Of a stretch of 64,000 bases of DNA, positions 203 to 63,530 are shown piece after piece. The position numbers and the translations under genes are program-made. Positions within the stretch are counted from its first letter, which is position 1, and each line of letters opens with the position of its first letter. A model generated the notes under the pieces. The model did not search any database, was not told where the DNA came from, and worked only from the letters and a program-made list of their open reading frames with translations. This stretch comes from Microglena sp. YARC (lineage: Eukaryota > Chlorophyta > Chlorophyceae > Chlamydomonadales > Chlamydomonadaceae), in the NCBI GenBank assembly GCA_022414725.1, contig CM039463.1:79781183-79845182 (forward strand), given 5' to 3'.

Positions 203-1230
203 CCAAGTGGGCAGCAAGATGATTAACCACTGTCACCATCACCAGTATCATCATCACCACCACCATCACCAGAACAAGGTAACCCACCCTCAGGTGTTTG
301 CCTGGTGCGCGTGCACTGCGTCGCTAGCACCTGCACCTGGTCCACTCCCATCAACCTTGCCGCTGTCTCCAAGTGGGCAGCAAGATGATTAACCAATGTT
401 ACCATCATCACCATCACTATCATCATCACCACCATCATCACCAGAACAAGGTAAACCATCCCCAGGAGTTTGCCTGGTGCGCGTGCACAGCGTCGCCAGC
501 ATCTGAACCTGGTCCACTCCCATCAACCTTAACGCTGTCTCCAAGTGGGCAGCAAGATTATCAACCAATATTATCATCATCATCACCACCACCATCACCA
601 GAACAAGGCAACCCACCCAGGGTACTCTAAAGCGCGCGAGGCAGCGCGATTTTGCGCACGCTTTTTGAGCCCCACTGCGCGTTTTTTCAGTTTTTCAACC
701 CCATGTAGGCGCAGCACGCAGTTTTTGCGCTTTTTGCACTACAAAGCGCTGACCAATTTGACGTTTGTGCGCTATCAGCGCTGACCAATTTGACAAAATG
801 TCGTACCCAGAACCAACCCTCAGGAGTTTGCCTGGTGCGCGTGCACAGCGTCACCAGCATCTGAACCTGGTCCACTCCCATCAACCTTGCCGGAGCCTCC
901 AAGTGGGTAGCAAGATAATCAACCACTGTCACCATCATCATCACCACCATCACCAGAACAAGGTAACCCACCCTCAGGAGTTTGCCTGGTGCGCGTGCAC
1001 AGCGTCGCTAACACCTGCACCTGGTCCACTCCCATCAACCTGCCTAAAGTCTCCAATTGGGCAGCAAGATGATTAACCAATGTTACCATCATCACCATCA
1101 CTATCATCATCACCACCATCATCACCTGAACAAGGTAAACCACCCCCAGGAGTTTGCCTGGTGCGCGTGCACAGCGTCGCCAGCATCTGAACCTGGCCCA
1201 CTCCCATGACCCTTGACGCTGTCTCCAAGT
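203..1230 (-). repeat. Five echoes of myosin exon 5 tail with splice donor
   Basis: Tandem units of about 150-170 bp, each holding a copy of the exon 5 3' end ([11 protein letters not shown]...TRTRQTP on the minus strand), a donor-like GG-GT, then a CACCATCATCA-rich spacer. The exon-derived parts lie near 288-365, 461-535, 820-890, 970-1045 and 1148-1220. Several keep an open frame but carry substitutions. Two units are interrupted by the same MITE at the same site. Confidence 0.85.
618..810. mobile_element. hAT-like MITE, CAGGGTAC family
   Basis: Starts CAGGGTACTCTAAAGCGCGC and ends ...GTCGTACCCAG. The interior is rich in GCGC and carries AATTGGTCAGCGC on the minus strand. Flanks AACCCACC / AACCAACC form an imperfect 8-bp target duplication inside the exon 5 tail echo. 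There is no coding capacity. Related copies: 1302-1497, 49019-49214, 57889-58075 and 58241-58435. Confidence 0.85.
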
Positions 1231-1301
1231 GGGCAGCAAGATTATCAACCAATATTATCATCATCATCACCACCACCATCACCTGAACAAGGCAACCCCC
1301 C

Positions 1302-1497
1302 CAGGGTACTACAAAGCGCGCGCGGCAGCGCGATTTTGCGCACACTTTTTGAGCCCTTACTGCGCGTTTTTCACAGTATTTTCAACCTCCTGTAGGCGCA
1401 ACGCGCAGGTTTTGCGCTTTTCGCACTACAAAGCGCTGACCAATTTGACGTTTGTGCGCTTTAAGCGCTGACCAATTTGACAAAATGTAGTACCCTG
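1302..1497. mobile_element. hAT-like MITE, CAGGGTAC family
   Basis: Starts CAGGGTACTACAAAGCGCGC and ends GTAGTACCCTG, with matching terminal inverted repeats. Flanks AACCCCCC / AACCCACC look like an 8-bp target duplication. It occupies the same position in its repeat unit as the copy at 618-810, so one insertion was probably copied along with the echo unit. Confidence 0.87.
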
Positions 1498-1504
1498 AAC
1501 CCAC

Positions 1505-1751
1505 CCTCAGGAGTTTGCCTGGTGCGCGTGCACAGCGTCGCTAGCATCTGAACCTGGTCCACTCCCATCAACCTTGCCGCTGTCTCCAAGTGGATCATGG
1601 CATGAGGGGCCACTGTGGAGGAGTCATGATGAGAACCATCTGCCTCCACAAAGGTGATGTTACCGAGATGGAGGAGGCCAGCAAGGAGCTGAAACACCTC
1701 ATCTTGTTCCTTCTCTTTGATGCCGACACACCTCATGGCTTGCCTTGTGTG
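1505..1751 (-). CDS. Myosin exon 5: HLGNI block
   Basis: Acceptor TTCCACAG; starts [11 protein letters not shown], completing the conserved DAEEY-x-x-TR-x-AM-x-x-VGI stretch across the intron from exon 4. It continues through [20 protein letters not shown], an acidic loop and [11 protein letters not shown], and ends in phase 1 at ...RTRQTPE before donor GTGGGT. Its last roughly 75 bp are echoed five times between here and the left edge. Confidence 0.93.
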
Positions 1752-4700
1752 CTGTGGAATGAGGGATGGAGGGGGGTTAGAAGGGAGAGACCTGGTGTGT
1801 GGATGTGTTGAAGAGGGAGGGGTAGGGAGGGGGGGGGGGCAGGGGGGGGGGGGGGGAAAGAAGAGGGGGGGGGGAGAGGAAGAGGGGGGGGAGAGGGAGA
1901 GGGAGGGGCGGAAGGAGAGAGGGAGAGGAGAGAGAGAGGGAGTGGGGGAGAGGGAGAGAGAGAGGGAGAGAGAGGAGAGAGAGAGAGAAAGGGAGAGAGG
2001 GGAGGGGAGAGAGGGAGAGTGGGTGAGGAGAGGGTAACGTACTACAGCGAAGAGGAATACAAGTTTAAAACAGCACAGGGTGCCTTGCTCAATTCCTTCA
2101 TTGCGTTGTAGCCCCTTTCAGTGATATACAATGATCTAGTGGTAGACCAGATCGCTTGAGGATGAAGAGTCGGTGGTTCGACTCCCCCTTCGGTCGCTCT
2201 TGGCGTTGCAGGTCGTCGTCAACCGCAATGGTAGCTTGCCCAGTTGAGGTAGGAGACCTCTCCCCACCCGCGTACGACAGGCTCCCTTAACACCACGCCC
2301 CACCAGGCGTTATCAGTATCATTGCATTGTCATCGGCAGGCCATTGCTGACCCAAGACAAGCCCGCTCTACAACATCATTGGGAACTTCTAACCAATCCT
2401 CGCAATAGGAAGCAAAGGGTGCAAGAAATGCCAATCATCTGGTACAAGGGATCGGCACACTATATGATGTTGACCAAGGCGAGTATGATATCATATGATG
2501 CTGACAGTCTTACTAGGCTAAAGTTGCCATATGTATACAATATCATATGATGCAATTTGTATGTTAGCATATGATACCATGCAACTTGCAAAATATGATA
2601 TTGTATATGAATGGTTACTTTAGCCTAGCCAGACTGAATGACTTGAAATCATATTGGCGTTCCCTACCTGGCACTCTTCTGCATCACACACACTGGGTAG
2701 CTCAAAGCAGTTGCTCGGGTTGAGGTGCTTGAAGCTTTCATATACTGTATGACCTTATAGAATGACTTGAAATCATATTGGCGTTCCCTACCTGGCATTC
2801 TTCTGCATCACACACACTGGGTAGCTCAAAGCAGTTGCTCGGGTTGAGGTGCTTGAAGCTATCATATACTGTATGACCTTATAGAATGACTTGAAATCAT
2901 ATTGGAGTTCCCTACCTGGCACTCTTCTGCATCACACACACTGGGTAGCTCAAAGCAGTTGCTCGGGTTGAGGTGCTTGAAGCTATCATATACTGTATGA
3001 CCTTATAGAATGACTTGAAATCATATTGGCGTTCCCTACTTGGCACTCTTCTGCATCACACACACTGGGTAGCTCAAAGCAGTTGCTCGGGTTGAGGTGC
3101 TTGAAGCTATCATATACTGGTATGACCTTATAGAATGACTTGAAATCATATTGGCGTTCCCTACCTGGCACTCTTCTGCATCACACACACTGGGTAGCTC
3201 AAAGCAGTTGCTCGGGTTGAGGTGCTTGAAGCTATCATATACTGTATGACCTTATAGAATGACTTGAAATCATATTGGCGTTCCCTACTTGGCACTCTTC
3301 TGCATCACACACACTGGGTAGCTCAAAGCAGTTGCTCGGGTTGAGGTGCTTGAAGCTATCATATACTGTATGACCTTATAGAATGACTTGAAATCATATT
3401 GGCGTTCCCTACCTGGCATTCTTCTGCATCACACACACTGGGTAGCTCAAAGCAGTTGCTCGGTTGAGGTGCTTGAAGCTATCATATACTGTATGACCTT
3501 ATAGAATGACTTGAAATCATATTGGCGTTCCCTACCTGGCACTCTTCTGCATCACACACACTGGGTAGCTCAAAGCAGTTTGCTCGGGTTGAGGTGCTTG
3601 AAGCTATCATATACTGTATGACCTATAGAATGACTTGAATCATATTGGCGTTCCTACCTGGCACTCTTCTGCATCACACACACTGGGGTAGCTCAAAGCA
3701 GTTTGCTCGTCGGTTTGAGGTGCTTGAAGCTATCATTATACTGTATGACCTTATAGAATGACTTGAAATCATATTGGCGTTCCCTACCTGGCACTCTTCT
3801 GCATCACACACCTGGGTAGCTCAAAGCAGTTGCTCGGTTGAGGTGCTTGAAGCTATCAGTTATACTGTATGACCTTATATAGAATGACTTGGAAAAATCA
3901 TATTTTCCGATACCGCATTCTTCTGCATCACACCACTGGGCTAGCATCAGTTGCTCGGGTTGAGGTGCTTGAAGCTATCATATACTGTATGACTTTTAGA
4001 ATGACTGAATTATTGGGCGTTCCGTACCTACTGGTTCTGCATCAACACACGGGTAGCTCAAAGCAGTTGCTCGGGTGAGGTGCTTGAAGCTATCATATAC
4101 TGTATGACCCTTATAGAATGACTTGAAATCCGTTCTAGCCTGGCTCTTCTGCTCAACACACACTGGGTAGCTCAAAGCAGTTGCTCGGTTGAGGTTTGTT
4201 TGAAGCTATCATATACTTTTTAGAATGACTTGAAATCGGCTTTCCCTACCGCATCCTGCATCACACTGGTAGCTCAAAGCAGTTGGCTCGGGTTGAGGTC
4301 TTGAAGCTATCATATACTGTATGACCTATAGAATCTTGAAATCATATTGGCGACTGGGGCTGCAAGATTGCTCAATATTGCGGGTATCACACTGGGTAGC
4401 TCAAAGCATGAAGAAGCTATTTATACTGTATGACCTTTTATGTTGGCGTTCCCTACTGGCACTTTTCGCATCACACACACTGGGTAGTCAAAGCAGTTGC
4501 TCGGTTGATTGAAGCTATCATATACTGTATGACCCTTATGAGAATGACTTGAAACATATTTGGGCGTTCCTACCTTGGCACTTTCTGCATCACACACACC
4601 TGGTAGCTCTAAAGCTAGTTGCTCGGGTGAGGTGCTTGAAGCTATATATATACTGTTTGACCTTATAGAATTGACTTGAATCATATTGGCGACCTGGAAA

Positions 4701-7700
4701 TCTGGGTAGAAGCAGTTGCTCGGTGAGGTGGCTTGAAAATCATATACTGTATGACTGACTTGAAATGCTACCTGGCACTCTTCTGCATCACACACACTGG
4801 GTAGCTCAAAGCAGTTGCTCGGCTTGTAGGTGCTTGAAGTTGTATGACCTTATTAGCGTGACTTGAAATCATATTGGCGTTCCCTACCTGGCACTCTCCT
4901 GCATCACACAACTGGTCTCAAAGCAGTTGCGGCGTTGAGGTGCTTGAAGCTATCATATACTGTATGACCTTTTAGAATGACTTTGAAATCATATTGGCGT
5001 TCCCTACCTGGCACTCCTTCTGCATTCACACACACTGGGTAGCTCAAAGCAGTTGCTCGGTTGAGGTGCTTGAAGCTATCATATACTGTATGACCTTTAT
5101 AGAATGACTTGAAATCATATTGGCGTTCCCTACCTGGCACTCTTCTGCATCACACACACTGGGTAGCTCAAAGCAGTTGCTCGGTTGAGGTGCTTGAAGC
5201 TATCATATACTGTATGACCTTATAGAATGACTTGAAATCATATTGGCGTTCCCTACCTGGCACTCTTCTGCATCACACACACTGGGTAGCTCAAAGCAGT
5301 TGCTCGGGTTGAGGTGCTTGAAGCTATCATATACTGTATGACCTTTATAGAATGACTTGAAATCATATTGGCGTTCCCTACCTGGCACTCTTCTGCATCA
5401 CACACACTGGGTTAGCTCAAAGCAGTTGCTCGGTTTGAGGTGCTTGAAGCTATCATATACTGTATGACCTTTATAGAATGACTTGAAATCATATTGGCGT
5501 TCCCTACCTGGCACTCTTCTGCATCACACACACTGGGTAGCTCAAAGCAGTTGCTCGGGTTGAGGTGCTTGAAGCTATCATATACTGTATGACCTTATAG
5601 AATGACTTGAAATCATATTGGCGTTCCCTACCTGGCACTCTTCTGCATCACACACACTGGGGTAGCTCAAAGCAGTTGCTCGGGTTGAGGTGCTTGAAGC
5701 TATCATATACTGTATGACCTTATAGAATGACTTGAAATCATATTGGCGTTCCCTACCTGGCACTCTTCTGCATCACACACACTGGGTAGCTCAAAGCAGT
5801 TGCTCGGGTTGAGGTGCTTGAAGCTATCATATACTGTATGACCTTTATAGAATGACTTGAAATCATATTGGCGTTCCCTACCTGGCACTCTTCTGCATCA
5901 CACACACTGGGTAGCTCAAAGCAGTTGCTCGGGTTGAGGTGCTTGAAGCTATCATATACTGTATGACCTTATAGAATGACTTGAAATCATATTGGCGTTC
6001 CCTACCTGGCACTCTTCTGCATCACACACACTGGGTAGCTCAAAGCAGTTGCTCGGGTTGAGGTGCTTGAAGCTATCATATACTGTATGACCTTTTAGAA
6101 TGACTTGAAATCATATTGGCGTTCCCTACCTGGCACTCTTCTGCATCACACACACTGGGTAGCTCAAAGCAGTTGCTCGGGTTGAGGTGCTTGAAGCTAT
6201 CATATACTGTATGACCTTTTAGAATGACTTGAAATCATATTGGCGTTCCCTACCTGGCACTCTTCTGCATCACACACAGCACACTGGGTAGCTCTTGAAA
6301 AAGCACCTGGCACTCTTCTGCTCTGGGTTGCAGTTGCTCGGGTTGAGGTGCTTGAAGCTATCATATACTGTATGACCTTTTAGAATGACTTGAAATCATA
6401 TTGGCGTTCCCTACCTGGCACTCTTCTGCATCACACACACTGGGTAGCTCAAAGCAGTTTGCTCGGGTTGAGGTGCTTGAAGCTATCATATACTGTATGA
6501 CCTTATAGAATGACTTGAAATCATATTGGCGTTCCCTACCTGGCACTCTTCTGCATCACACACACTGGTAGTCAAAGCAGTTGCTCGGGTTGAGGTGCTT
6601 GAAGCTATCATATACTGTATGACCTTATAGAATGACTTGAAATCATATTGGCGTTCCCTACCTGGCACTCTTCTGCATCACACACACTGGGTAGCTCAAA
6701 GCAGTTGCTCGGGTTGAGGTGCTTGAAGCTATCATATACTGTATGACCTTATAGAATGACTTGAAATCATATTGGCGTTTCCCTACCTGGCACTCTTCTG
6801 CATCACACACACTGGGTAGCTCAAAGCAGTTGCTCGGGTTTGAGGTGCTTGAAGCTATCATATACTGTATGACCTTATAGAATGACTTGAAATCATATTG
6901 GCGTTCCCTACCTGGCACTCTTCTGCATCACACACACTTGGGTAGCTCAAAGCAGTTGCTCGGGTTGAGGTGCTTGAAGCTATCATATACTGTATGACCT
7001 TATAGAATGACTTGAAATCATATTGGCGTTCCCTACCTGGCACTCTTCTGCATCACACACACTGGGTAGCTCAAAGCAGTTGCTCGGGTTGAGGTGCTTG
7101 AAGCTATCATATACTGTATGACCTTATAGAATGACTTGAAATCATATTGGCGTTCCCTACCTGGCACTCTTCTGCATCACACACACTGGGTAGCTCAAAG
7201 CAGTTGCTCGGGTTGAGGTGCTTGAAGCTATCATATACTGTATGACCTTATAGAATGACTTGAAATCATATTGGCGTTCCCTACCTGGCACTCTTCTGCA
7301 TCACACACACTGGGTAGCTCAAAGCAGTTGCTCGGGTTGAGGTGCTTGAAGCTATCATATACTGTATGACCTTATAGAATGACTTGAAATCATATTGGCG
7401 TTCCCTACCTGGCACTCTTCTGCATCACACACACTGGGTAGCTCAAAGCAGTTGCTCGGGTTGAGGTGCTTGAAGCTATCATATACTGTATGACCTTATA
7501 GAATGACTTGAAATCATATTGGCGTTCCCTACCTTGGCACTCTTCTGCATCACACACACTGGGTAGCTCAAAGCAGTTGCTCGGGTTGAGGTGCTTGAAG
7601 CTATCATATACTGTATGACCTTATAGAATGACTTGAAATCATATTGGCGTTCCCTACCTGGCACTCTTCTGCATCACACACACTGGGTAGCTCAAAGCAG

Positions 7701-10700
7701 TTGCTCGGGTTGAGGTGCTTGAAGCTATCACATACTGTATGACCTTATAGAATGACTTGAAATCATATTGGCGTTCCCTACCTGGCACTCTTCTGCATCA
7801 CACACACTGTGTACCCCAAAGCAGATGATCTAGTTGAGGAACTGGAAGCTATTATATACAGAATGATAGCGTATGATGACTTGGTATCATATTGCCGTTC
7901 CCCAGCTGGTACTCTTCTGCGTCACACACTAGGTACCTCAAAGCAGATGATCTGGTTGAGGAACTGGAAGCTATCATATACAGAATGATCTCATATGATG
8001 ACTTGGTTTTATATTGACGTTCCCTACCTGGTACTCTTCCGCATCACACACACTGGGTAGCTCAAAGCAGTTGCTTTGGTTGAGGTACTGGAAGCGGCGG
8101 GCCGCGACAGGGGCTGCCTCTAGACCCCACCTCACACGCTCCTCGTCATTGGCACCAGCACAGAGCTGGTAGAAGACATGGAACGAGCGCTCGTTGGGGC
8201 TTACGTGGACCACTCTTGAGCGTTCCAGGAGGTAGGTGCGAACAGCAGCACCGCGCATTTCGCCTGCTCGCCGGCCGAAACTGATCTCCACATACTTTCC
8301 GAAGCGGGAGGAGTTATCGTTGCGAACCTGGGTGGGATGGGGTGGGGTGGGGTGGGGAAGGGCGGGTTGGGTTGGGTGATTGGGTTGGGTTGGGTGGTTG
8401 GGTTGGGTTTAAGGGGGTGGGCGGGCGGGGCGGGGCGGGGTGGGGTGGGTAAGGGTGGGGTGCAGTGGGGCGAGTGGGGTGAGTGGGGGGGGGGGGGGGG
8501 GAGAGTTGCGCTTCAGCTGGTGATGGTGATGGTAGGGGTGGGTGGGGGGGGGTGGGGGGGGGGGGGAGGGGCGATGGCATTGGAGAGGAGATGCACATGT
8601 GTGTGGGCTTGAGAGGAGATGCCATTGAATGTGTAAGGGTGCTGGCCTGAGTTTGGTCGTGTGGGCGTGCATCAGCAGCATCGTGACAGGCGTGGATGAC
8701 GAGTAAGTAGGGACCAGCATATCATATGATGTTGTCCAAAAGACAGTATGATATCATATGATATCATACAAATTGCATAATATTGTACATAAATGGTAAC
8801 TTTCATTTAATTCAATTCAATCTTATGCAATCAAATTCAAATAAACGCTACAAGCCGGCTCTGTTGCAGGACAGCCTGGGTTTAGGGTTTAGGGTTTAGA
8901 CTAGTAGACTCACCGTCTTAGCATTCCCAAAAGCCTCGAGAAGGGGATTTGATTCCAGCACTCGCTGTTCCACGGAAACGAAACCATCAGCGGCGCCACT
9001 AGACATGGAAAAAACGTCGCCATGGGTGCCTCCAAGTTGCGCCAGACATTTCATGATCAGCTTACTGGTCTCTGTCTTGCCAGCTCCGCTCTCTCCAGTG
9101 ATCTGCACAGGCAGGCAGGCAGGCAGTTGTATTAGCTTTGGGTGGTGTACACCAATTCACCATGGGTGCCTCCCAGTTGCGCTAGGCCATTCATGATCAA
9201 CTTGCTGGTCTCTGTCTTACCAGCCCTGCTCTCTCCAGTGATCTGTACAGACAGACAGGCAGACAGACAGACAGACAGAAAAACAGACAGAAAGTTAGTT
9301 AGTTAGTTGTATAAGCTTTGGATGATGTATCACCAATTGTGATCTGCAGAGACAGGCAGGCAGTTAGTCGTATTAGATTTGGGTGGTGTACACCAATTCA
9401 CCATGGGTGCCCCCCAGTTGCTCTAGGCAATCCATGATCAGCTTACTGGCCTCTGTCTTGCCATCTCCGCTCCCTCCAGTGATCTGTACAGGCAGGCAGA
9501 CAGGCAGACAGACAGGCAAGCAGACAGGCAGTAAGTTTCATTAGCTTTCTGTGATGTATCACCAATTGTGATGTGCACAGACAGGCAGTTCGTTGTATAC
9601 AACATTGTTTTTATTTTATTATTTTATTTTATTATTTTATTATTTTGTATTTATATTTTAGTTGTATTAGCTTTGGGTGATGTATCACCAATTCACCACT
9701 GGTCCCTCCCCCGGGGCGGCTCTTAAGGCAGCCCTATCCAAATCACAACCTGGACCCCACTCTTGAAAGGTGCCAAATCCCTGAAAGCTTCAAGAAGGCC
9801 CCCTTTCTGAAATGAAAAAAACTCTGTAGAGCACATTGTGGCAATACACATGAGGTGGACAGAAGAGATTTGTTAAAACCCATAAAGATGGCCTACCCAT
9901 TACCGCCTCTCTACATCTGGCAGTACGTAGATCGCATTGTGGCAATACACATGAGGTGGACATTATATATTTTAGCACTTCCCAATATGTCCTGCCCATC
10001 ACCGTCCCGCAACATCTGGCGGTACGTAGATCGCATCGTGGCAATACAGATGAAGAGGGCATTATATATTTTAAACACTTACCAATATGTCCTGCCCATC
10101 ACCGTCCCGCAACATCTGGCGGTACGTAGATCGCATCGTGGCAATACAGATGAAGAGGGCATTATATATTTTAAACACTTACCAATATGGCCTGCCCATC
10201 ACCGTCCCGCAACATCTGGCGGTATGCAGCGCATGATGTGGCAACACACATGAGGTGGACGCAATAGATTTGTTAACACGGTCGAACACAACAATATGGT
10301 TATAATTAATATCGCCAACATGCGCCTTTCAAAACCCACCAAGATGGCCTGCCCATCACCGTCCCGCAACATCTGGCGGTATGTAGATCACATTGTGGCA
10401 ATACACATGAGGTGGACATCATAATTTGTTTAACACTTATCAATATGGCCTGCCCATCACCATCCCGCAACATCTGGCGGTACGTAGAGCACATTGTGGC
10501 AATACACATGAGGTGGACAGAAGAGATTTGATCAAACCCACCAACTTTGCCTGCTCATTACCGCCCCGCTACATCTGGCGGTGAGTAAAGCACGCTGTGG
10601 CATACTCATGAGGTGCACAATATATTTATTTGAACACGTACCAATATGGCCTGCCCATCACCGTCCCGTAACGTCTGGCAGTGTGCAGCGCACGCAGTGG

Positions 10701-13700
10701 CATACACAAGGCGTGAACAGAAGAGATTTTTTAACACTTACCAATATGGCCTGCCCATCACCATCACGCAACATCTGGCGGTATGCAGCGCACGCTGTGG
10801 CATACACATGAGGTGGCATGGTATCTCCAGAAGTAGCTGCCTTTCTGTACTGTTCCATGCTGGAGGCACCAAAAAGGTGAGGCAGAGGCTGGAAGGGGTT
10901 CACTGCGATTAGGATGTTGCCTGTGTTGGTGTAGATGTCCCGGGTCTCATAGCGAGTCTGCAGGTTCCACAGTACTCCAGGTTCGTGCAGGTGGGAGAGG
11001 AGGGTCATGTCCTGGGTGGGAGAGGATGGATGTGGGTTCGCATTTAAGTGAATTACAGGCTGGAAGGGGTTCACCGCGATAAGGATGTTGCGTGTGTTGG
11101 TGTTCATGTCCTGGGCCTCATATCGAGTCTGCAGGTTCCACGGACCCCAGGCCCGTGCAGTTTAGGGTTGACCCGCCCACAAAAGCTCTCTATCCCCAAC
11201 CATACAGCACTCACCCATCCCCACCCCACATTGGGGGGGGGGGGGGGAGTGTTGTGTGGTTGGGGGTGGAGACCTTTGGTGGGCAGGTAGGTGGATGAGC
11301 GGACACAATACTCCAGTGCAGGTGGGAGAGGATGGAATTGGCGTTACATATTAGTGGAAGTGGAAGTAGGAGTAGAAGTAAAAGTAGAAGTGGTAGTAGC
11401 AGTAGCAGTAGAAGTAGAAGTGGAAGTGTGCATCCCTTGAAGTGCAAGAATTGAGCTAGGTGTGAGAGGATGGAAGTGGCGTTACATATTAGTGGAAGTG
11501 GAAGTGGAAGTAGGAGTAGAAGTAAAAGTCGAAGTGGTAGTAGAAGTAGCAGTAGCAGTAGAAGTGGAAGTGTGCATCCCTTGAAGTGCAAGAATTGAGC
11601 TAGGTGTGAGAGGATGGAAGTGGCGTTACATATTAGTTGAAGTAGAAGTAGAAGTGAAAGTGTGCATCCATTGAAGAGCAAAAATTGTGCTAGGTGTGAG
11701 AGGATGAAAGTGGGGTTCAGGATGTGTTTGAATACAAGTGCAAATATTGTGCTAGCACTCTGACAGGGCTTTTTCCGTTACCAGTAGCAATCGCTGCCTG
11801 GGACCTCGTTTTGGCCAAAAATTATAAGACCATGACACCAAAACCTAAGAACCCCACGAGGCGGCCCTTCGGGCTGCCCTACCCAAATCACTACCTGGAC
11901 CCCATCGTTGGAAAGTACAAAATCCCTGAAAGGTACCACAAGATCCCCTTTCTGCATTAAAACAAGCCCTCGTAGTGTCGCAAGCGACGCAGAAAATTGG
12001 CGGCAGGTGTTGGCTATCGGAGCAACTGGTTGCAACAGAATCAAGCGCAGTGGAACGAAGCCAGGGTCGGACAGACGCACGGACAAGCGGACAATGCAGT
12101 GACCCTGGGGGTTCTCGTCTCCCAGAAGGGGTGGCTATGCCAGAAAAAGATCAACTCTGACCAGACGGTGTTTCTTTCAATTGGCCCCTCCCAGAAAACT
12201 TCAGGTGATCTTGATTGTTCGAGGTTGGGCGGGTCCATTTAGCCAATCTGGCTACACCCTGGGCTGCAACTGTGCAACTGTGTGGCAGTGTGATTGTGAA
12301 ATTGTGTAACAGTGTGATAGTGTAACTATGTAACAGTGTAACTGTGTAACTGTGTGACATTATAACTTTGTGGATGTGTAATTGTGTGACTATTTAACTG
12401 TGTGACAGTGTAACTGTGTTACTGCTTATGAATCTTCCCTACTTCTAATTTCCCCTGCTTATTTCTTCGTCTTGAATCGAAGTAGGAATGGTTTTTCATG
12501 AATATGGCTCAGAAGTGGAAATTGATAATACATTGAGAATATGTTGAAAATGGCGAGGATGCATGCATTCAAAATTGCATGTAGTGGTGCATGCAGAAGT
12601 GCATATTTAAGTGCAAGCAGAAGTGGATGCATGTAGTAGTGGATGCAGAGGCGCATGCTGTCGTCGATGCATGTAGTGGTGGATGCAGAGGTGCATGCAG
12701 TGGTGTACGCAGTCGTAAATGCAGAAGTGCATGCTGCCGTGGATGCTTGTATTGGTGCATGCAGAAGTGCATGCAGAAGTGCATCCAGTGGTGGATGCAG
12801 AAGTGCTCGCTGTAGTGGATGCACGTATTGGTGCATGCAGAAGTGCATGTAGTGGTGGATGTAGAAGTGCATGCTGTCGTGGATGCATGTATTGGTGAAT
12901 GCAGAAGTGCATCCAGAAGTGCATGCAGTGGTGGATGCAGAAGTGCATGCTGTCGTGGATGAATGAAGTGGTGCATGCAGAAGTGCATGCTGTTGTGGAT
13001 GCAGTGGTGGATGCATGTAGTAGTGGATGCATATAGTGGTGCCTGCAGAAGTGCATGCTGTCGTGGATGCATGTAGTGGTGCCTGCAGAGGTGCATGCTG
13101 TCGTCGATGCATGTAGTGGTGGATGCAGAGGTGCATGCAGAAGTGCATGCAGTGGTGTACGCAGTCGTAAATGCAGAAGTGCACGCTGCTGTGGATGCCT
13201 GTAGTGGTGCATGCAGTGGTGGATGCAGAAGTGCATGCAGTGGTTGATGCAGAAGTGCATGCAGTGGTGGATGCATGTTGTAGTGCATGCAGTGGTGGAT
13301 GCAGAAGTGCATGCTGTCGTGGATGCATGTAGTAGTGCATGCAGTGGTGGATGCAGAAGTGCATGCTGTCGTGGATGCATGTAGTAGTGCATGCAGTGGT
13401 GGATGCAGAAGTGCATGCTGTCGTGGATGCATGTAGTAGTGCATGCAGTGGTGGATGCAGAAGTGTAAGCCGAGGTGCATGCAGTGGTGCGTGTAGTGTT
13501 GCATGCAGTGGCAATATTCTTGCAAGCCACATGGTAGGCAGTCCAAGCATGCTGCTGTCGGGGGTTCTGCTGCTCAGTACTGCAGCTGCGTGGTGCATGG
13601 TGAGATGGTGAGTGTTGCATGCTGAATAGTGAGATGGTGAGTGTTGCATGCTGAATTGTGAGATGGTGAGTGCTGCATGGTAAGATGGTGAGATGGTGCG

Positions 13701-16505: not shown

Positions 16506-16551
<46 letters not shown>

Positions 16552-18615: not shown

Positions 18616-18757
18616 GGGGGGAGGCTACCCTCCAGTGAGCTAGCATCCACAAGCCAGATCCTCCTCGGGTTTAGGGTTTAGGGGTTTAGGATATAAGGTT
18701 TAGGGTATAAGAGATCTGGCTTGTGGATGCTAGCTCACTGGAGAGTAGCTTCCCCCC
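18616..18757. repeat. Inverted repeat with telomere-like spacer
   Basis: Left arm about 18616-18657 (CTCCAGTGAGCTAGCATCCA ... CAGATC) and right arm about 18711-18757 (GATCTGGCTTGTGGATGCTA ...) are near-perfect reverse complements of about 40 bp. The spacer is degenerate TTTAGGG repeats (18668-18708). Confidence 0.85.
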
Positions 18758-18779
18758 TCCACCTTCCTGGCCCCTGGCC

Positions 18780-19370
18780 CTGTCGTAAATCCACAGTAAA
18801 CCCGCAATTGACATTAGTTGCGTGTATGAGGCGTGTGTTAGCAAGTCTCAGAGAAGTGGCACTGCCGATTCTGTATTGCATCATGTTTATAGGTGTCAAG
18901 TAGACTTTAACATGTAATGTAATGTAATGCAATTCAATGTAATGTAATAGGAAAGAAACAGGAGTCGAGTGTGTGAGGCGTGTGTTAGTAAGTCTAAGAG
19001 AAGTGGCACTGCCGCTACTGTATATAGGACAGAAACAGGAGTCGAGTGTATCAGGCGTGTGTTAATAAGTCTAAAAGAAGTGGCACCACCGGTACTGCAC
19101 TGCATCATGTATACAGGACGGAAACACTCTTTCCCCCTTGCTCATTTGTAGACAAATGGATGCTTAACACATGTTTGACATTAAGAATAACTGACACATA
19201 CTTCTGTCAAAAGTGACCTGCGCTTGACCTTAGCCTTACTGGCCCCCTGGCCCTGTCATAAACCCACAGCAAAACCGCAAGTGACATCAGTTGGGTGTGC
19301 CAGGCGTATGTTAGTCAGTCTATGAGAACTGGCGCTACCGCTACTGTACTGCATCATGTACATAGGGGAG
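18780..19370. repeat. Four-copy repeat downstream of the SRPBCC exons
   Basis: About 75-110-bp units with core CAGGCGTGTGTTAGTAAGTC followed by AGAAGTGGCACTGCCG, near 18780-18880, 18955-19020, 19030-19110 and 19260-19350. On the minus strand each reads SGSATS-x-RL-x-NTRLIH-like residues and some are preceded by an acceptor-like GATGCAG. It could be an echoed terminal exon of the SRPBCC gene, but no gene family supports this. A short LINE tail (TAATGTAATG) sits at 18888-18950. Confidence 0.5.
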
Positions 19371-25500: not shown

Positions 25501-25594
25501 CCCACACTCCAACCTCAAGGATACTACGCAACACCTAACAGAGGCCCTTTGGCATATGTTGCTGCACCTGGACTGGATCAACCACACATGTACC

Positions 25595-25626
<32 letters not shown>

Positions 25627-25968
25627 AAACACACAAACACACAAAACGTGCACGCACATCCACTTGTTCCCAAAGCATCAACCCCCCGGTTTCACCTGAA
25701 TCAGCAAAGGGTTCCCTCCTTCACTCTGCAAATCTGAATCTAGTATGTTGTGGTATACCTGCCCTCCCCCTACACCTACTCATTGACCCTTTCCCTCCAA
25801 CCACAACCCCACAACCAAAACCCACCCACATATACACACACCATCCATGTTCCGAGGCATGAAACCATGGTCTCACCTGAATCAGCAAAGGCTTCAACCT
25901 TTTGCTCTGCAACTCTGAATCTAGTATGCTGCGGTGTACCTTCCCTTCCCCTACACCCACTCAGCACC

Positions 25969-26018
<50 letters not shown>

Positions 26019-26431
26019 ACACACACACACCACCCATGTTCTCAGGCATGAAACCATGGTCTCACCTGAATCAGCAAAGGCTTCCCCCCTTCGCTCTGCA
26101 ACTCTGAATCTAGTATGTTGTGGTAAACGTTCTGGCAGTTCTGCACATCCCTCAGGATGCCAAACACCATGCTGGCTGGGGATTTACACATAATCTTGCC
26201 AGCCACGGTGTACAGGCCCTCCGAGTTTAGGGATATGAAGCGAGCTGACTTGACGGGCATTGCATCGGGATCCACAATACCATCGAGCACCATAGGCTCT
26301 ACGGATTGTCGGGTCGTGACCTCCATGGCGCTCGCTCGCAGGCGGAGATTTCGGAGGGGAGCAGATGGCGTGGCACGGGAGGCCGACGCGCTGTGGAAGC
26401 TTCTAGAGGGGCATTGGGATCGCGTGAGCAT
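19527..26431 (-). CDS. SRPBCC/START-like domain protein, transit-peptide-like N-terminus (3' end unresolved)
   Basis: Three phase-0 exons join cleanly: 26431-26066, 22022-21909 and 19673-19527. The first 40 or so residues (MLTRSQCPSRSFHSASASR...) are Ser/Arg-rich with few acids, like a plastid or mitochondrial transit peptide. The body follows the helix-grip polyketide cyclase/lipid-transport pattern: LYTVAGKIMCKSPASMVFGI, DVQNCQNVYHN, then CRWAFGPFSGTFKASM, MKLNFILKESSFM, FEGKWKVTP, VVEACVVDHQLSVKP and APIAEMM. The ligand cannot be read from sequence. ATG 26431 is the first in frame. The terminal exon(s) left of 19527 are not identified; introns are 4.0 and 2.2 kb and repeat-filled. The assignment rests on pattern and exon phase. 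Confidence 0.78.
19867..20002. mobile_element. TAGGGA-family MITE
   Basis: TAGGGACTGGCATATCATAT ... TTGCCGTTTCCTA. Flanks CACGTTAT / CGCATTAT form an imperfect 8-bp target duplication. It lies in SRPBCC intron 2. Confidence 0.82.
20309..20488. mobile_element. TAGGGA-family MITE
   Basis: TAGGGACCATAAGGCATATC ... ATATTGCCGTTCCC with the shared interior (TTGACCAAAGGTGAG, TTTAGCCTAGTCAGACTGCC). It lies in SRPBCC intron 2. Confidence 0.82.
20847..21735 (-). repeat. Six echoes of SRPBCC exon 2 tail
   Basis: About 40-nt copies of the exon 2 end (SMKLNFILKESSFM) near 20847-20901, 20975-21040, 21075-21145, 21175-21235, 21405-21470 and 21665-21735. Four keep a GT after the final ATG (GTGGGA or GTGAGA). 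Several are preceded on the transcript strand by a pyrimidine stretch and GATAG, forming a plausible 40-nt pseudo-exon. They are interleaved with a dispersed GGGTGCGTCATGGAAGCTAC repeat. Confidence 0.85.
22030..22310. repeat. GGGGTG-rich low-complexity tract
   Basis: GGGGTGAGGGTGGGG-type repeats between the exon 2 head echo and exon 2. Pyrimidine-rich on the transcript strand and running into the exon 2 acceptor. Confidence 0.9.
22315..22390 (-). pseudogene. Echo of SRPBCC exon 2 head, acceptor retained
   Basis: Minus strand: acceptor GCTTCAG, then ICRWAFGPFPGSFKASMTIEE-like residues, ending without a donor. The true exon reads TCRWAFGPFSGTFKASMIVE. It sits upstream of exon 2, separated from it by a G-rich tract. 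Confidence 0.85.
22545..22860. repeat. Tandem repeat of about 60-bp units (GGCAGTACATGATCCCAATG)
   Basis: Eight or so copies of CATGACAGTGGGCAGTACAT followed by GATCCCAATGAC, alternating AACCAACA and AACCATC ends. On the minus strand each resembles the segment WFAIGVVLP of the ORF at 23439-23660, so it may be another exon-edge or TE-edge echo. Confidence 0.8.
23439..23660 (-). CDS. Possible hydrophobic coding segment, function unknown
   Basis: Open frame with IWLPWFAIGVVLPTLTLHYA (a plausible membrane helix) followed by a polar region (DPRQAHSTTSWRGLLTHPKN) and a stop at 23439. It lies inside SRPBCC intron 1 but cannot belong to that gene without breaking a clean exon 1 to exon 2 join. A second, broken copy at 2326-2445 suggests a dispersed element. 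No family is recognised. Confidence 0.25.
   Translation of the reverse strand, partial: EGEGEGVGSLRPGIWLPWFAIGVVLPTLTLHYAFIKAIVDPRQAHSTTSWRGLLTHPKNWIGKIAASKRFCRH
23662..25012. repeat. C-rich minisatellite (CCCACCTACAACCAACCCCT)
   Basis: About 1.35 kb of units near 100-140 bp containing CATCCCCCCACCTACAACCA, CCCCTCCCCCTCACCCATAC and CACACACCATCACCTTCACC. Both edges carry related sequence (CCAATGGCAAACCACGGC at 23600; CCAATGCCTAACCAAGGC at 25010). It produces Pro/Thr/His-rich artefact frames. G-rich on the SRPBCC transcript strand. Confidence 0.93.
25059..25150 (-). mobile_element. TAGGGA-family MITE, inverted, truncated
   Basis: GGGAACGGCAATATGATGTC ... GATGCCGGCAGTCTGACTAG, the reverse orientation of the other copies. 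The far end degenerates around TAATATAATTATATG. Confidence 0.75.
25685..25945 (-). repeat. Two echoes of SRPBCC exon 1 tail with donor
   Basis: Copies of the last roughly 65 bp of exon 1 (ILDSELQS...PLLIQ) at about 25685-25760 and 25865-25945, each followed by CAG and GTGA (GTGAAA and GTGAGA). Spacers carry CA-rich and poly-C sequence. They lie directly downstream of exon 1 in transcription order. Confidence 0.87.
25967..26018. repeat. Poly-C run of about 50
   Basis: Uninterrupted C homopolymer between an exon 1 tail echo and the true exon 1 end; the exact length is unreliable. Confidence 0.9.
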
Positions 26432-30971: not shown

Positions 30972-33900
30972 CTACTCCTTGCTCCCAGAACTAGCTCCCT
31001 CGCTACTAGCTACACTCTTCTCGCTAATACCCGTGCTTGCAGCCGGTTGTTTTGCGCTGGCCAAGCGCGAGTCGACCATTGAGGCCATGCGAGTCAAAGA
31101 ATCCGACACCTCCGCTGCTGTTCCCTCGCTGGCCATCTCGGCAGGCGTGGCAGGCGTGGTAGTGGCAGGGGTGGCAGTGGCCACCTCGACGGGGATGGCA
31201 GGGGCTGAGCTAGGCATGTCTGGACGCTCCAACGTCTCTGGCATAGACCTAGACTGGGGCTCAATGGTGGCAGCGGGATCGGCAGCATCAGCATCAGCAG
31301 GAGCATCAGCAGCAGCGGCAGGAGCAACAACAGCAGCAGCAGCAGCAGTAGCAGCAACAGGAGCATCAGCGGCAGCAGCGTCGTCCTTTGGTGGGGGCAG
31401 GGCGGCCTTCTCCTTCGCAGCCAGTGCCGCTGCCCTCCTCTGAGCCAGCTCAGCCTCCACCAGCCTGGCCTGGCGCCTAGCCTCTTGCTGCTCCTTCTGA
31501 TATGCCAACTCGAGCTGCAGCTCCGCGGAAATGGCCTTGTCCTCAGCCTGTAACAATGATGAATTTTAAATCAAAATCGCAGTCTTTCATGACTTCAGTA
31601 ACCCCCAACCCCTTGGGGTGCACCAAAAGAAAATGGGCCAAGCTTATATATATATACAACCGAGTGGGCGTTCTGAATATTTAAAAGAGATGGAATTAAT
31701 TATCATGTTTTTGTTACCACTTTCTTAGATAAACTAGTACATGAGGTACCGAGCCCCAGCACCTACCCCTTCGCGACCATGTCCACAGGAACCCAAAGCT
31801 CATGCTGTAACCAAATGCTCATGCAAACGGTGTTATCACATATGTGTACTCGTTGACAGGTTGGCCATCCTACTCTACCAATGCACCAACTCGGTCAATG
31901 ACGTTATTCCCGAAAAGGGTGCCAGCCTGTCAATAACGTAACTCCCGACAAGGGTGTCAGCCTGCCAATAACATAATTCCTGACAAAGGCGGTACCCAGC
32001 GGTCTGGGCAGACTTACAACTGTACACAATTTCAGGACAAAGGTTAGATTGCTCCTGACGGGCTTCGCACCCTCGACCTCAGCGGGAATTATGATATTGA
32101 CAGGTTGACCATACCACTCAACCAATGCGCCTATCCGTCATCCTACCCTGTGCAGAATAAAATTCGCCCCCCGTGCGATCAGGGTAGGGGACCCCCCCTG
32201 GATCGTGGGAGTCCTCTGTGACAGGTCGACCATACCACTCAACTAATGCACCTATCGGCCATCCTACACTGTGCAGAATACAATTCGCCCCCCGTGCGAT
32301 CAGGGTAGGGGACCCCCCTGGATCGTGGGAGACCTTTGTGACAGGTTGACTATACCACTCAACCAATGCACCTCTCAGTTATGTGCTAATGACGTTATTC
32401 CCGACATACTTCATCCATCGGCTAAATTTACATGGTCCGCTATATTTACCTGCCTAATCGCGGGATACCTGTAAAACGAAATTACGAGTTTTTTTATTTT
32501 CCACCCTTCTTTTTTTCCTCTCCTTACAACTGCAACCAATAGGTTCTCAAACCGTTGTATTAGAAAACCTACCTTATTGACATGGTCCCACCAGTGGGAA
32601 CACATGCAGGAGCACTTCATATAAATTTCTCGAACATAATATACCGGTATATAGGTCAAACAGAACAACAGTAAAAGAGATAAATGATGCAAAAGCAGAA
32701 GACAGCGCACACTGCGAATTAGGGGGGTCTGCGGCACCCTTTTATTATTATAAGGATTCGTTCTGGGTGTGAAGGGTGCTGTAGGGGTACCGTAGGGGTG
32801 CAGAAAAGGGTGCTGAAGACCCCCCAAATTTGCAGTGGCAAATGCACAGGCATAGGCCTGGATATATAATATATATTCATATGCACACATATAACTGTAT
32901 AAGAAGGGGGAGTAAAATATCAATCCACAAGATGCAGGATGGTCTTGAATATATTAAACCTTGTATTATATATAAATATAATAAGCATTTCATTGGCATA
33001 CAAAGAGGGGGAGTTTATTCATATATGAATAAGCTATCTATTATATATACATGTCATCATATGCAAATGTGAAAAGTGCTTCGATTTAAACTTATGAGCG
33101 AGTAACAAAAGCAAGACATGGCGAATGAAAACGTTCTGTACATAAGAGTTGTTTGTGAGATGCGTAAGAAAGCCAGAGCCTAAATTGACCTTGGGGAGGT
33201 TGCGCGTGTGTGTGTGTGTGTGTTGGGGGGGGGGGGGGGGGGCAACGGCCACGCGTGCAATGTACAGATGAACTGGTATAGTATATATGTCATCATACGT
33301 AAAGAAAGAAGCACAATTTTCACTGACAATCTCGGCTTCTTCTTCGCTTCACGATATAAAGAATTATATAAATACTTATATATATATATATATATAAGCG
33401 GTTTATATATGTTTACATGAACATTATTATGGTTATATATCTTCTATAAGACAATACATATACAAAAAGCATGCTGTGGACTCACAGATTCTTGCTTCTT
33501 CTGCATACCCAAGGCCTTGTTGGCCTTTGAAATAAATGTTTAATTTTAAATTTCACACATTTTTATTTTTTATGCTGACTCACAGATTCTTGCTTCTTCT
33601 GCATACTCAAGGCCTTGTTGGCCTTCGAAATAAAGGTTTACTTTTTAATTTCACACATTTTTATTTTTATGTTGACTCACAGATTCTTGCTTATTGTGCA
33701 TACTCAAGGCCTTGTTGGCCTTCGAAATAAAGGTTTACTTTTTAATTTCACACAATTTTATTTTTATTTTTTATGCTGACTCACAGATTCTTGCTTCTTC
33801 TGCATACCCAAGGCCTTGTTGGCCTTTGAAATAGCCGGGAAGAAGTTCTCGTTGTTCTCAAGCACCAGCACACTCCCAAACAGGAGGAAGGAACCTAAAC

Positions 33901-35156
33901 CCAAGATGCCCCAAATCTTGGTCTTCCCAACTGGCTGCTCCGGCTTTGGAAGGGGCGCTGCCGCTTGCATTACTTGAGAAGCAGGCACCATCTGCATACA
34001 TAGATTAGGGTTCAGGGTTGAGGGTTGATGGCTTAGGTTTTAAAGTTTAGGGTTTATGGTTAAGGTTTGAAGGTTTAGGGAATGTGGCCATATGGAAAGT
34101 ATTAAGGTAGGCCATGCTTTAATTGTGTACCACCTGCATGCGGGGTATAAGTAGCGATTCAGGGAGGGACCGGCATATCATATGATGTTGACCAGAGGCG
34201 AGTATGATATCGTACAAATTGCATCATATGATATTGTGTATAAATGGCAACTTTAGCCTAGTCAGACTGCCGGCATCATATGATATCATACAGCCGTTTC
34301 CTACATACAAGTCATATTTAATGTACTTTGAATTTGTACTTGAGCTGGACCTGGACCTGGGATTTTCAATTGACCTCGACAAATCCTTAAACTGTCAAAT
34401 CCGCTTATTAAGCTCCCTGGTTTCCATGGGTATCGAACGAGGGGACTTGGAATTGGAAGATGGTCAGCAGCCCAGAGTTGACCGAAAATCATGTAACAAT
34501 TTAATTTTGTATTGCAAGTTTGAATGCGCGCGTAGCATTGATTGGCATAGCAAGATTATTCTGAAGGAAGACAGGGACTTGCCCACCAGTACTTTTCAGC
34601 GCAGCTACCGGCATCGCTGTTTTTCTTTGCAGCTCCGCATAGCAGCTTCTAGGCAGCTCCCTGATCTAGCTGCAGGGCTAAGCCACAAGATTTCAGCAGT
34701 GCTTGGCATCTGACTGTGTCGGCATTCAGTTACGCTGGGTCGCTAGGGGTTTGACTGGTTAGTCAACCAGGGGAGCTGCCCAGAAGCTAATAAATGTCGC
34801 CGAAAAACAAACCAGCCCTGCCCACTTCTGGATGACGGTTGAGGTTCATCGCCTTCTTCAAGTCTGTGCTATGCATGCCTCTTCTTCATACATCTGCTAC
34901 ATACATCTGCTACATACATCTGGTTTGAACATGCAACACATGCAACAAAACATTTCCCCCCCACCACCCCACACACACCCCACCACGATCACCCACCACA
35001 TACACACACACTCTCACACACACACGTACATAAACGCACCCACAAGATTGCATGGACTACAAACACACATGTGCAAAAGAGCCAGTAAGACCTGCAGCTC
35101 CCCAACTTATGTCTTATGAAGCAGAATCTGTCCTCGTTATATCCCTACTCTCTCAG

Positions 35157-50839: not shown

Positions 50840-51940
50840 AAGATAGCTACCAGCGAGATAGCAAATAGCGAGATAGCAAATAGCGAATTAGCAACAAGTG
50901 AGTTAGTAAAAAGCGAGTTAGCATCTAGCTCTCCACCAACACACCATCACACTTAGACACATACACACACAAAAAGTCCAATACGAGGACGGTGTGCCGA
51001 AAGTGATTTTCATAATAAAATAAAGACAGAAGTCCAGCTCCATCATACTGAACTCTTAATATCTTGTCTTCAAGGGGACATATGGGCCAGAGTTCTTCGA
51101 CCCACCTAGATAAAGATGACATACAGATAGGGAGCGGCAACTAATATTAGTGTTTGAAAACTAATATTAACTCATATCATTACAGTGTCACAATAATATT
51201 ACTTTTTCAACTAAATTCGAAATTCTGGTGAGGCGGCTCGTCCAACTAATATTACCAGTATGTAATATTATATAATATTATTTATTCACTAGTATTATAT
51301 AACATAGCCGACTCCTACATACAGGCAACAGTTGTTCAGGGAACTGCGTCCTCTATCGCAGACGAGACAGATCATACTTCTTATGCTACCCGAAAAAACA
51401 TTGAAATTGAAAAATGAAGTTGTTCGATTTTGGTGTTTGAAGGGATTCCTCCCCCGGAAATGTGGCCTCGAGGCTTTAAAAAGAAATATCTCCAAATCAC
51501 AATTTTATTTCATACCTTATGCTGAATAAAAGTAGGTATAATTCAGCATAAGGTCTGAATGCTGAATTATTGTATTGTGAAATGAAGAAACAATTCACAA
51601 TGTAGTCAATGCTGCTGCATGACAGAAAAAGTAAATGAAGACAAGGAAAAAATACAAACACCACAGAAAAATATGTTTTCAACTCACGGCCTGCAAGTAT
51701 ATCAGGACCCACCCCTTGGCACCACCAACATCATCGCGTCCCAAATGTATGCCAAACCTACACAGCTCAAACCTGCACGTCTACAGGCCACCCTTACACA
51801 CCTCACGACCACATACTTCAACACAAGTCAAAAATAACACATGAGCCCGAGGGCAGACCTCCAGGGGACCCACCAGGACAACCTCATATTTATGGCTCAA
51901 TCCGCATGGCTTGATTCGTAACACTCACTTCCCGCCCTAT
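50840..51940. other. AT-rich stretch, no gene supported
   Basis: Contains AGCGAGTTAGCAAATAGC repeats (50840-50925), several TAATATTA/AATATTATA palindromes (51140-51300), and a hairpin of 14-bp arms ACCTTATGCTGAAT / ATTCAGCATAAGGT at 51513-51554. A short frame at 51690-51836 after a possible acceptor (TATATCAG) could be an exon of the gene ending at 52870, but evidence is thin. Confidence 0.45.
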
Positions 51941-51943
51941 CCT

Positions 51944-52475
51944 GGCACATTCCCGCCCTCTCATGTATGCACGCACACAGGCGACGACACGACCATTCCC
52001 ACATTGAAAGGAGTTTAGGGTTTAGCACCCATGCGCACACACAAGCATACATGCACTAACATGCACACACACAAGCACAAGCACATGCACATCCTGACAC
52101 ATTCCCGCCCTCTCTTGTATGCACGCACACAGGCGACAACACGACCATCCCCACCTTGCAAGGAGCTTAGGGTTTAGCACCCATGCGCACACACAAGCAT
52201 ACATGCACACACACAAGCACAAGCACATGCACATCATGACACATTCCCGCCCTCTCTTGTATGCACGCACACAGGCGACAACATGACCATCCCCACCTTG
52301 CAAGGAGCTTAGGGTTTAGCACCCATGCGCACACACTAGCACACATGCACACATACATGCACACACACAAACAAAAGCACATGCACATCCTGACACATTC
52401 CCGCCCTCTCATGTATGCACGCACACAGGCGACGACACGACCATCCCCACCTTGAAAGGAGCTTGGGGTTTAGCA
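51944..52475 (+). repeat. Four echoes of the 52545 exon head with acceptor
   Basis: Four copies of TGACACATTCCCGCCCTCTC, TATGCACGCACACAG (acceptor), then GCGACGACACGACCATCCCC and ACCTTGCAAGGAG. The exon part ends and TTTAGGGTTTAGCACCC plus CA-rich sequence follows. Copies at about 51944-52030, 52087-52180, 52237-52320 and 52395-52470; the fifth, at 52502-52571, runs on into the true exon. Confidence 0.9.
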
Positions 52476-52544: not shown

Positions 52545-52870
52545 GCGACGACACGACCATCCCCACCTTGCAAGGAGTTACCCAGTTCAGCCCTTGGTTC
52601 CAGAATGGCACGCGGAAAAGCATGTTGCTTGATTTACAAGCTTCTGTCCATGAGGGTCACACACACCCCACTACGACACAAGCTGACATTTGGATTAACA
52701 CGCCGCCCTTCTTGGAACTTTCATATAAGGGGATAGATGCTAGGGGAACCCATTTCGAGATTACAAAAAAACACAACTTGTGCATGGAGTTGGACATCAG
52801 AAAGTTTAAGAATGATTCGAGGGGGATGCACTTAAGCAAAGGGTACCCCCGGTTGTTTGTGGGGAATTAA
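52545..52870 (+). CDS. Terminal exon of an unrecognised gene
   Basis: Acceptor CACGCTAACAG; phase 1 entry; 107 codons to stop at 52868-52870. Sequence starts GDDTTIPTLQGVTQFSPWFQ, then NGTRKSMLLDLQASVHEGHT, FLELSYKGIDARGTHFEITK, and ends YPRLFVGN. Mixed polar and aromatic composition, no low complexity, consistent with a folded domain's end; no family is recognised. Upstream exons are not convincingly identified. The exon head is echoed four times upstream, as in the other genes here. Confidence 0.5.
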
Positions 52871-63177: not shown

Positions 63178-63189
63178 CTAGGTGGGTGG

Positions 63190-63211
63190 GTGGTGGGTGT
63201 GTTTGTTTGTT

Positions 63212-63261
<50 letters not shown>

Positions 63262-63290
63262 GGTGGGGTGGGGGTGGGGTGGGGGTGATA
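63190..63290. repeat. (GT)n and GGGGTGG tract
   Basis: About 20 GT units followed by GGGGTGGGGGTGG, directly upstream of the exon at 63177; on the transcript strand it forms a (CA)n plus C-rich acceptor region. Confidence 0.92.
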
Positions 63291-63419
63291 GGATGGGTGC
63301 TATTTCAGGATCAAAGACTGCTATTCAGATGGACATACAGGATAAATGAAAGCTTTTTACAAAATTGGTGACGAATTTTGGTCAGTAGACCATCGACAGA
63401 CCAAGCGATATTGAACAAG

Positions 63420-63530
63420 CGAACAGTCTCTAAGGTCAGACAACACATTGTACTGTCCACACAACACATTTGTACTGTCACACAAACACATTGTACTGTC
63501 ACACAACACATTGTACGCCTGGGTGGGTCA
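63420..63530 (-). repeat. Echo of J-protein exon head with acceptor
   Basis: On the minus strand CCACCCAG then GCGTACAATGTGTTGTGTGA repeats the true exon start (CCACCTAG then GCGTACAATGTGCTGTCTGA); the 20-25-bp ACAATGTGTTGTGTGACAGT core is then repeated three more times. Confidence 0.82.

What the first reader, a model, noticed from the sequence alone, without database searches (positions are those of the whole stretch)
203..63530. Exon-edge echoes: exon ends with their splice sites are tandemly copied into the adjoining introns of many genes
In the myosin, SRPBCC, plastid-protein and J-protein genes and the plus-strand gene ending at 52870 (and possibly the exon at 49957), copies of an exon's 3' end plus GT donor lie downstream in the intron, or copies of its 5' end plus AG acceptor lie upstream. 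I count about 80 echoes at 11 exon edges, on both strands. Polarity is consistent: tails go downstream, heads upstream. Most echoes are 40-120 bp and often carry damaging substitutions, so they are not simply alternative exons. CCT3 (8 introns) and the TOG gene (3 introns) nearly lack them. This points to a mutational process that repeatedly copies splice-junction-proximal DNA, such as break repair at R-loops or slippage, expanding introns from their ends. Intron birth by tandem duplication of AGGT sites is known, but repeated, polarised echoing across neighbouring genes is not something I know to be described.
Basis: partly seen in the sequence, partly recalled or inferred. Interest (0 to 1): 0.93.

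Follow-up and report, generated by a model that had tools for sequence, protein, structure and literature searches.

The report
Exon borders tandemly copied into introns
In this green alga, short stretches of DNA that straddle exon-intron borders have been duplicated over and over into the neighbouring intron in many genes, leaving introns full of decoy splice sites; the same oddity is known from a few genes of amphioxus, but here it is common in the genes sampled.

Summary
Tandem arrays (unit 88-215 bp) whose unit straddles an exon-intron junction extend into the intron. In 38 introns of CCT and myosin genes with exact junctions, 13 of 38 donors and 16 of 38 acceptors have such copies (132 in all); shuffled introns gave none in five rounds. 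Tails lie only downstream, heads only upstream, and exon centres are not copied (0 of 8). Kinesin and dynein matches agree.

No junction-reading mechanism is needed: any tandem duplication across a junction gives this polarity if the outermost splice site stays in use. Breakpoints fall evenly around the junction, units are about half intronic, echo splice sites decay like their neighbours, and 0 of 69 echo donors keep an open frame.

This is the anatomy of amphioxus 'mirage' minisatellites, here common in a chlamydomonadalean alga. Open point: junctions are hit about 2.4-3 times as often as intron interior, either a hot spot or a legacy of shorter ancestral introns (a mean interior of about 220 bp would remove the excess; relatives' medians are 198-343 bp).

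The parts
10742..11012 (-). Myosin motor exon ('E4'); last base 10742; upstream limit approximate
   Evidence: PF00063; donor fixed by junction fit
11057..11160 (-). Head echo of this exon, upstream, 88% identical (a weak second piece at 11304-11335)
9825..10816 (-). Tandem array of this exon's tail plus donor, period about 100 (includes the authentic tail)
8914..9102 (-). Myosin P-loop exon
   Evidence: PF00063; junctions
9157..9507 (-). Two head echoes of the P-loop exon with AG acceptor (9157-9266 and 9398-9507), 86-88%
8028..8327 (-). Myosin exon ('E6') ending in CAG|GTAGGG
   Evidence: PF00063; junctions
2636..8095 (-). Array of the tail of exon E6; 124-bp unit = 68 nt exon tail + about 56 nt intron head; 44 matches including the authentic one; the genome search found no other place
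   Evidence: TRF; whole-genome DNA search
1503..1751 (-). Myosin exon ('E7'); first base 1751 fixed, donor end approximate
   Evidence: PF00063
175..1232 (-). Six tail echoes of exon E7, period about 172, 81-96% identical
26066..26400 (-).
   Evidence: sequence and BLAST; no Pfam match; gene identity not tested
25688..25943 (-). Two tail echoes of that exon with donor (25855-25943 and 25688-25758), 90-92%
33785..34010 (-).
   Evidence: gene identity not tested
33479..33729 (-). Three tail echoes of that exon (one 56-nt copy 100% identical)
52545..52870 (+). Exon of the plus-strand gene ending at 52870, preceded by a CTAACAG acceptor
   Evidence: open frame only, no Pfam match
51939..52461 (+). 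About four head echoes with acceptor upstream of that exon, period about 142-152

Best explanation
These are 'mirage'-type minisatellites. The genome suffers frequent tandem duplication of segments of roughly 70-215 bp, in introns and in stretches where I found no exons. When such a segment straddles a splice junction, one copy stays as the working exon edge and the extra copy, with its splice site, falls into the intron. The gene survives as long as the outermost donor and the outermost acceptor are the ones used. The array then grows by unequal exchange or slippage like any minisatellite, lengthening the intron from its end, while the exon copy is held by selection and the echoes drift. Shown: straddling units, tandem arrangement, polarity, even spread of breakpoints, neutral-like decay of echo splice sites, one unit confined to its own intron as far as the genome search sees, and outermost junctions in one annotated protein. 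Inferred: the duplication mechanism (microhomology or staggered-break repair), growth by unequal exchange, and near-exclusive use of the outermost sites in RNA. Suggested but not tested: tolerance because a partial exon has only one splice site and so cannot be defined as an exon.
For: 13 of 38 donors and 16 of 38 acceptors carry straddling copies, 0 in shuffled introns, 0 reversed, 0 of 8 exon centres. Exon share of the unit averages 0.49 and is compatible with uniform (28 edge arrays taken, KS p 0.25); period median 133.5. Echo GT positions keep the exon's letters in 90% and 90% of copies, AG in 90% and 94%, within the range of neighbouring positions. 0 of 69 GT-bearing echo donors would keep an open frame; up to 38 of the 69 are from the one myosin array. 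TCP1-alpha gene with echoes at several edges: joining the outermost junctions of five exons equals the annotated protein P0121 over 368 of 368 residues, and echoes appear as partial tblastn hits at lower identity in the right polarity. The 124-bp unit: 44 matches, all in this intron, 31 of them at 97-100% identity. Non-edge arrays are common. Amphioxus mirages share the anatomy.
Against: Junctions are hit about 2.4-3 times as often as comparable interior points, which plain random placement at present intron lengths does not give. The excess is not confined to the oldest-looking arrays (ratio 0.9 for best identity below 80%, 3.5 for 80-88, 3.1 above 88; 3, 11 and 7 edges), and the 15 of 42 introns without arrays have a median of 637 bp rather than 220. 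No RNA evidence was available.
Confidence: 0.74

Rival explanations
1. Junction-targeted mutation (compatible with the mirage anatomy but adding a cause): exon-intron borders are true hot spots of tandem duplication, for example through transcription-linked breaks, R-loops or nucleosome edges, so introns grow from their ends.
For: Intron-only detection, which removes the advantage of the conserved exon copy: 21 of 76 edges against an interior-point rate of 0.093, ratio 3.0, bootstrap 95% interval 1.8-5.3; 2.4 (1.4-4.2) after removing dispersed repeats seen in the held sequence; 2.8 (1.6-4.9) with four more introns. Earlier null at current lengths: 19 edges against 10.0 expected.
Against: Breakpoints are spread evenly around the junction. 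A mean interior of about 220 bp when the duplications arose would make the ratio 1; core-Reinhardtinia introns have medians of 198-343 bp (PMC8226300, passages). With placement conditioned on each intron and collapsed lengths the excess was 19 against 12.8, or 22 against 14.4 without low-complexity masking.
Confidence: 0.22
2. The echoes are functional alternative exon ends or regulatory decoy splice sites.
For: Many echoes keep intact GT or AG.
Against: Echo splice sites are no better kept than flanking bases; 0 of 69 echo donors give an open frame and inserts are a multiple of 3 in 22 of 69, as by chance (acceptors not tested this way); the annotated TCP1-alpha protein uses none in the 368 residues compared.
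Confidence: 0.04
3. Intron birth by tandem duplication of an exonic AGGT segment, or introner-like transposons.
For: Tandem repeats with duplicated splice sites are the raw material proposed for intron birth (PMC3087553, passage).
Against: Units contain about half intron sequence (exon share 0.49 over 28 arrays), not exon only; the one unit searched genome-wide was found only in its own intron; none of the 23 interior arrays had more than 30% of its length matching other held loci (edge arrays not tested so).
Confidence: 0.03
4. Assembly artefact.
For: Minisatellites are hard to assemble; copy numbers may be wrong, and the myosin array holds 12 copies identical to the unit.
Against: Best identity within the 50 arrays is 68-96%, so copies differ by real substitutions; the edges lie on five large contigs and follow a strict polarity.
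Confidence: 0.02

Closest known systems
Amphioxus 'mirage' minisatellites (Adh, troponin C, globins BflGb6 and BflGb9, PGBD5)
   Same: [quoted passage not shown] units of 150-160 bp in globins, 10-72 bp in Adh3, 60 and 108 bp in PGBD5; many AG/GT kept; reported not to disturb splicing (PMC3087553 and PMC3902484, passages)
   Different: Here in a green alga and at 29 of 76 sampled junctions, with up to 44 copies; length polymorphism and RNA not examined
Intron gain by tandem duplication of AGGT-containing segments (Rogers model, named in the passage; potato RdRp case PMC4974935, search listing only)
   Same: Tandem duplication with duplicated splice signals
   Different: Here existing introns are lengthened; the unit is about half intronic, not wholly exonic
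Human introns from tandem arrays (Zhuo et al. 2007; content recalled, reference entry seen)
   Same: Tandem arrays containing exon sequence inside introns
   Different: Paper not read; no alternative splicing shown here
Direct repeats at splice sites (PMC11782384, abstract)
   Same: Repeats near splice sites
   Different: Those are 4-30 bp repeats at or near the intron borders, not arrays of about 100 bp

Membership tests
Mirage minisatellites | Repeat unit spans an exon-intron boundary | tested here: met
   29 of 76 edges
Mirage minisatellites | Both 5' and 3' boundaries affected | tested here: met
   13 of 38 donors, 16 of 38 acceptors
Mirage minisatellites | Many repeats keep AG/GT | tested here: met
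   GT positions 90% and 90%, AG positions 90% and 94% kept
Mirage minisatellites | Units homogenised within the cluster, border units excluded | tested here: inconclusive
   one array examined: 31 of 44 matches at 97-100%; copies next to the exon 83-89%, but a block in the middle is as divergent (83-89%) and the far end is not (99%)
Mirage minisatellites | Regular mRNA splicing undisturbed | tested here: inconclusive
   annotated TCP1-alpha protein matches outermost junctions over 368 of 368 residues; no RNA data
Mirage minisatellites | Allelic or somatic length instability | not testable with these tools
   one assembly only
Intron gain by AGGT tandem duplication | Unit wholly exonic | tested here: not met
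   exon share of unit mean 0.49 over 28 arrays
Duplicated alternative exons | Whole exon with both splice sites copied | tested here: not met
   of 27 partial-copy rows 22 share one edge only and 3 neither; 2 share both edges and are exceptions not followed up
Introners | Same element in many genes | tested here: not met
   edge units contain their own exon's sequence; the one unit searched genome-wide was found in one intron only

The most novel reading that the evidence does not exclude
Exon-intron junctions in this alga are true mutational hot spots, two to three times hotter than intron interior, so introns lengthen chiefly from their ends by junction-straddling tandem duplication, while the spliceosome reliably ignores up to about 40 similar downstream donors or 8 upstream acceptors.
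Probability: 0.25. Interest if true: 0.75.

Novelty: new member of a known kind. Interest (0 to 1): 0.5.

Why it matters
It turns a curiosity known from a few amphioxus genes into a frequent way for introns to grow, in a distant lineage where it can be counted. It is also a natural experiment on splice-site choice: many similar donors or acceptors sit beside the real one, and outermost-site use or exon definition can be tested on them directly. Annotation of such genomes must expect false partial exons.

Tried and rejected
Uniform-placement null with exons included: 30 of 50 arrays touch an edge against about 13 expected. Set aside because the conserved exon copy makes edge arrays easier to detect, and because two of the 30 lie inside HMM-defined exons; replaced by intron-only detection. 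A first test with approximate edges gave 20 edge contacts in 41 arrays against about 10. Age classes of arrays are too small to decide between hot spot and history. The idea that the P-loop echoes end in a perfect donor was dropped: they read GTGAAT. Two dynein genes show head copies at the same exon start; sequence could not be fetched, so shared ancestry versus recurrence is open.

Rows and cases left out: 58 of 64 CCT rows were used; six rows (two long single-frame matches, two on small contigs, two weak) were dropped. All 27 myosin, 128 kinesin and 63 dynein rows listed were used; the tool says its lists are lower bounds. The 29 rows of PF00133 are in no count. Of 46 inferred introns, 7 with score under 2.9 were dropped and 1 lacked its middle, leaving 38. 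The 28 edge arrays of the breakpoint test are the 30 less the two inside exons. Short introns are under-sampled, because HMM rows can read through them; four junction-fixed ones (86, 84, 632 and 76 nt) were added, and a fifth could not be fitted.

Negative literature statement: in the listings of searches I saw no report of this in an alga; the held library lacks most subscription papers.
Full report
What was checked. The window lies at G000:C2:79781183-79845182 of a 568-Mb assembly. The CCT3 protein read from it matches an EukProt gene model at 100% (P0001), and its nearest named relatives are Chlamydomonadales.

The window. Myosin exons were identified with Pfam PF00063 and their junctions fixed by requiring GT, AG and a matching count of residues between HMM matches. 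Copies of exon tails lie downstream and copies of exon heads upstream at five myosin edges. The J-protein edges and the exon at 49957 were not resolved, and the TOG gene was not tested.

Beyond the window. From CCT and myosin matches I obtained 38 introns with exact junctions and full sequence (7 weak fits and 1 incomplete intron dropped from 46). 13 donors carry 84 echoes and 16 acceptors carry 48; 40 of the 84 are in the one myosin array. Dinucleotide-shuffled introns gave 0 in five rounds. Of 18 exons of at least 150 nt with both introns known, tails recur downstream in 7 and heads upstream in 9; the reverse never; and 0 of 8 exon centres recur. Independently, 276 protein-HMM rows of CCT, myosin, kinesin and dynein contain 27 partial copies: 11 tails downstream, 11 heads upstream, none reversed, 2 sharing both edges, 3 neither.

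What the units look like. Periods of 28 edge arrays are 88-215 bp (median 133.5). The exon share of the unit averages 0.49 and is compatible with uniform placement of breakpoints around the junction (KS p 0.25). Arrays touching an edge make up 16,897 of 49,198 intron bp, all arrays 27,166; without the 6.3-kb myosin intron 11,505 and 21,774 of 42,922. The 124-bp myosin unit has 44 matches, all in its own intron; the tool warns that such a search can miss places. 31 of the 44 are 97-100% identical to the unit; those next to the exon are 83-89%, as is a block in the middle of the array.

Function. Letters of the exon's GT are kept in 90% and 90% of donor echoes, of AG in 90% and 94% of acceptor echoes; neighbouring positions span a similar or wider range. 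So echo splice sites look neither cleaned away nor protected. Of 69 echo donors with GT (up to 38 from the myosin array), 22 would insert a multiple of three and none would leave an open frame. For the TCP1-alpha gene, with echoes at several edges, joining the outermost junctions of five exons gives 368 residues identical to the annotated protein P0121; its echoes appear as partial tblastn hits at lower identity in the right polarity. The annotation is not RNA evidence.

Why the polarity is automatic. Tandem duplication of a segment with exon tail and intron head leaves the second tail and donor downstream, inside the intron, whichever copy is called the original; the mirror holds for heads. 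Duplications wholly inside an exon change the protein and are expected to be lost. So tails down, heads up and no centres follow from tandem duplication plus selection (inference).

Is the junction special? With introns alone (so that the conserved exon copy gives no advantage in detection), 21 of 76 edges are touched by an array, and a comparable interior point is covered at a rate of 0.093: ratio 3.0, bootstrap 95% interval 1.8-5.3. Without low-complexity masking 24 of 76 edges, ratio 2.8 (1.7-4.7); with dispersed repeats removed, as far as the held sequence shows them, 2.4 (1.4-4.2); with four more introns, 2.8 (1.6-4.9). Conditioning on each intron and on collapsed lengths weakens it to 19 against 12.8 expected. 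If the duplications arose when interiors averaged about 220 bp, the ratio is 1; core-Reinhardtinia introns have medians of 198-343 bp (PMC8226300, passages). Against that, introns without arrays have a median of 637 bp (15 of 42), and the excess is not limited to divergent arrays. I leave both readings open and put the hot spot at about one in four.

Known kind. [quoted passage not shown] Adh, troponin C and PGBD5 of lancelets show the same (PMC3902484, passage). The present arrays meet the anatomical features; RNA and instability could not be tested, and homogenisation was looked at in one array only, with a mixed result. New here are the lineage and the frequency.

Noticed in passing
C1:29812289-29815400 and C1:61037253-61039040 (rows): Two dynein heavy-chain genes carry head copies at the same exon start (HMM position 314): inherited array or recurrent hit of one edge.
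   Followed up: no
window 37.3-37.6 kb; C5:39348839-39348914: CCT3 and TCP1-alpha also have introns of 76-86 nt with no array, beside introns of 0.3-6 kb; the short ones may show the unexpanded state.
   Followed up: partly
window 14800-25600: A stretch in which I identified no exons is rich in tandem arrays (e.g. 17597-18319, 20808-21955, 23638-25001), so the duplication process may not be confined to introns.
   Followed up: partly
window 33479-33534: One echo is 100% identical to the exon over 56 nt while nearer copies are 92-97%, which suggests very recent copying or conversion.
   Followed up: no
window 42056-42125 and 42342-42409: A 70-bp segment starting close to the predicted donor of CCT3's exon ending near 42058 recurs once downstream at 84%.
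   Followed up: partly
window 5.1-6.0 kb region of the 2636-8095 array: A block of divergent copies (83-89%) sits between blocks of nearly identical ones, so the myosin array may have grown in more than one phase.
   Followed up: no
C5:39348001-39362000: The annotated TCP1-alpha protein P0121 stops at 418 residues, at the end of an exon followed by tail echoes, and may be cut short there; a second EukProt model of the same naming style (P0123, 84% identical) is full length.
   Followed up: no
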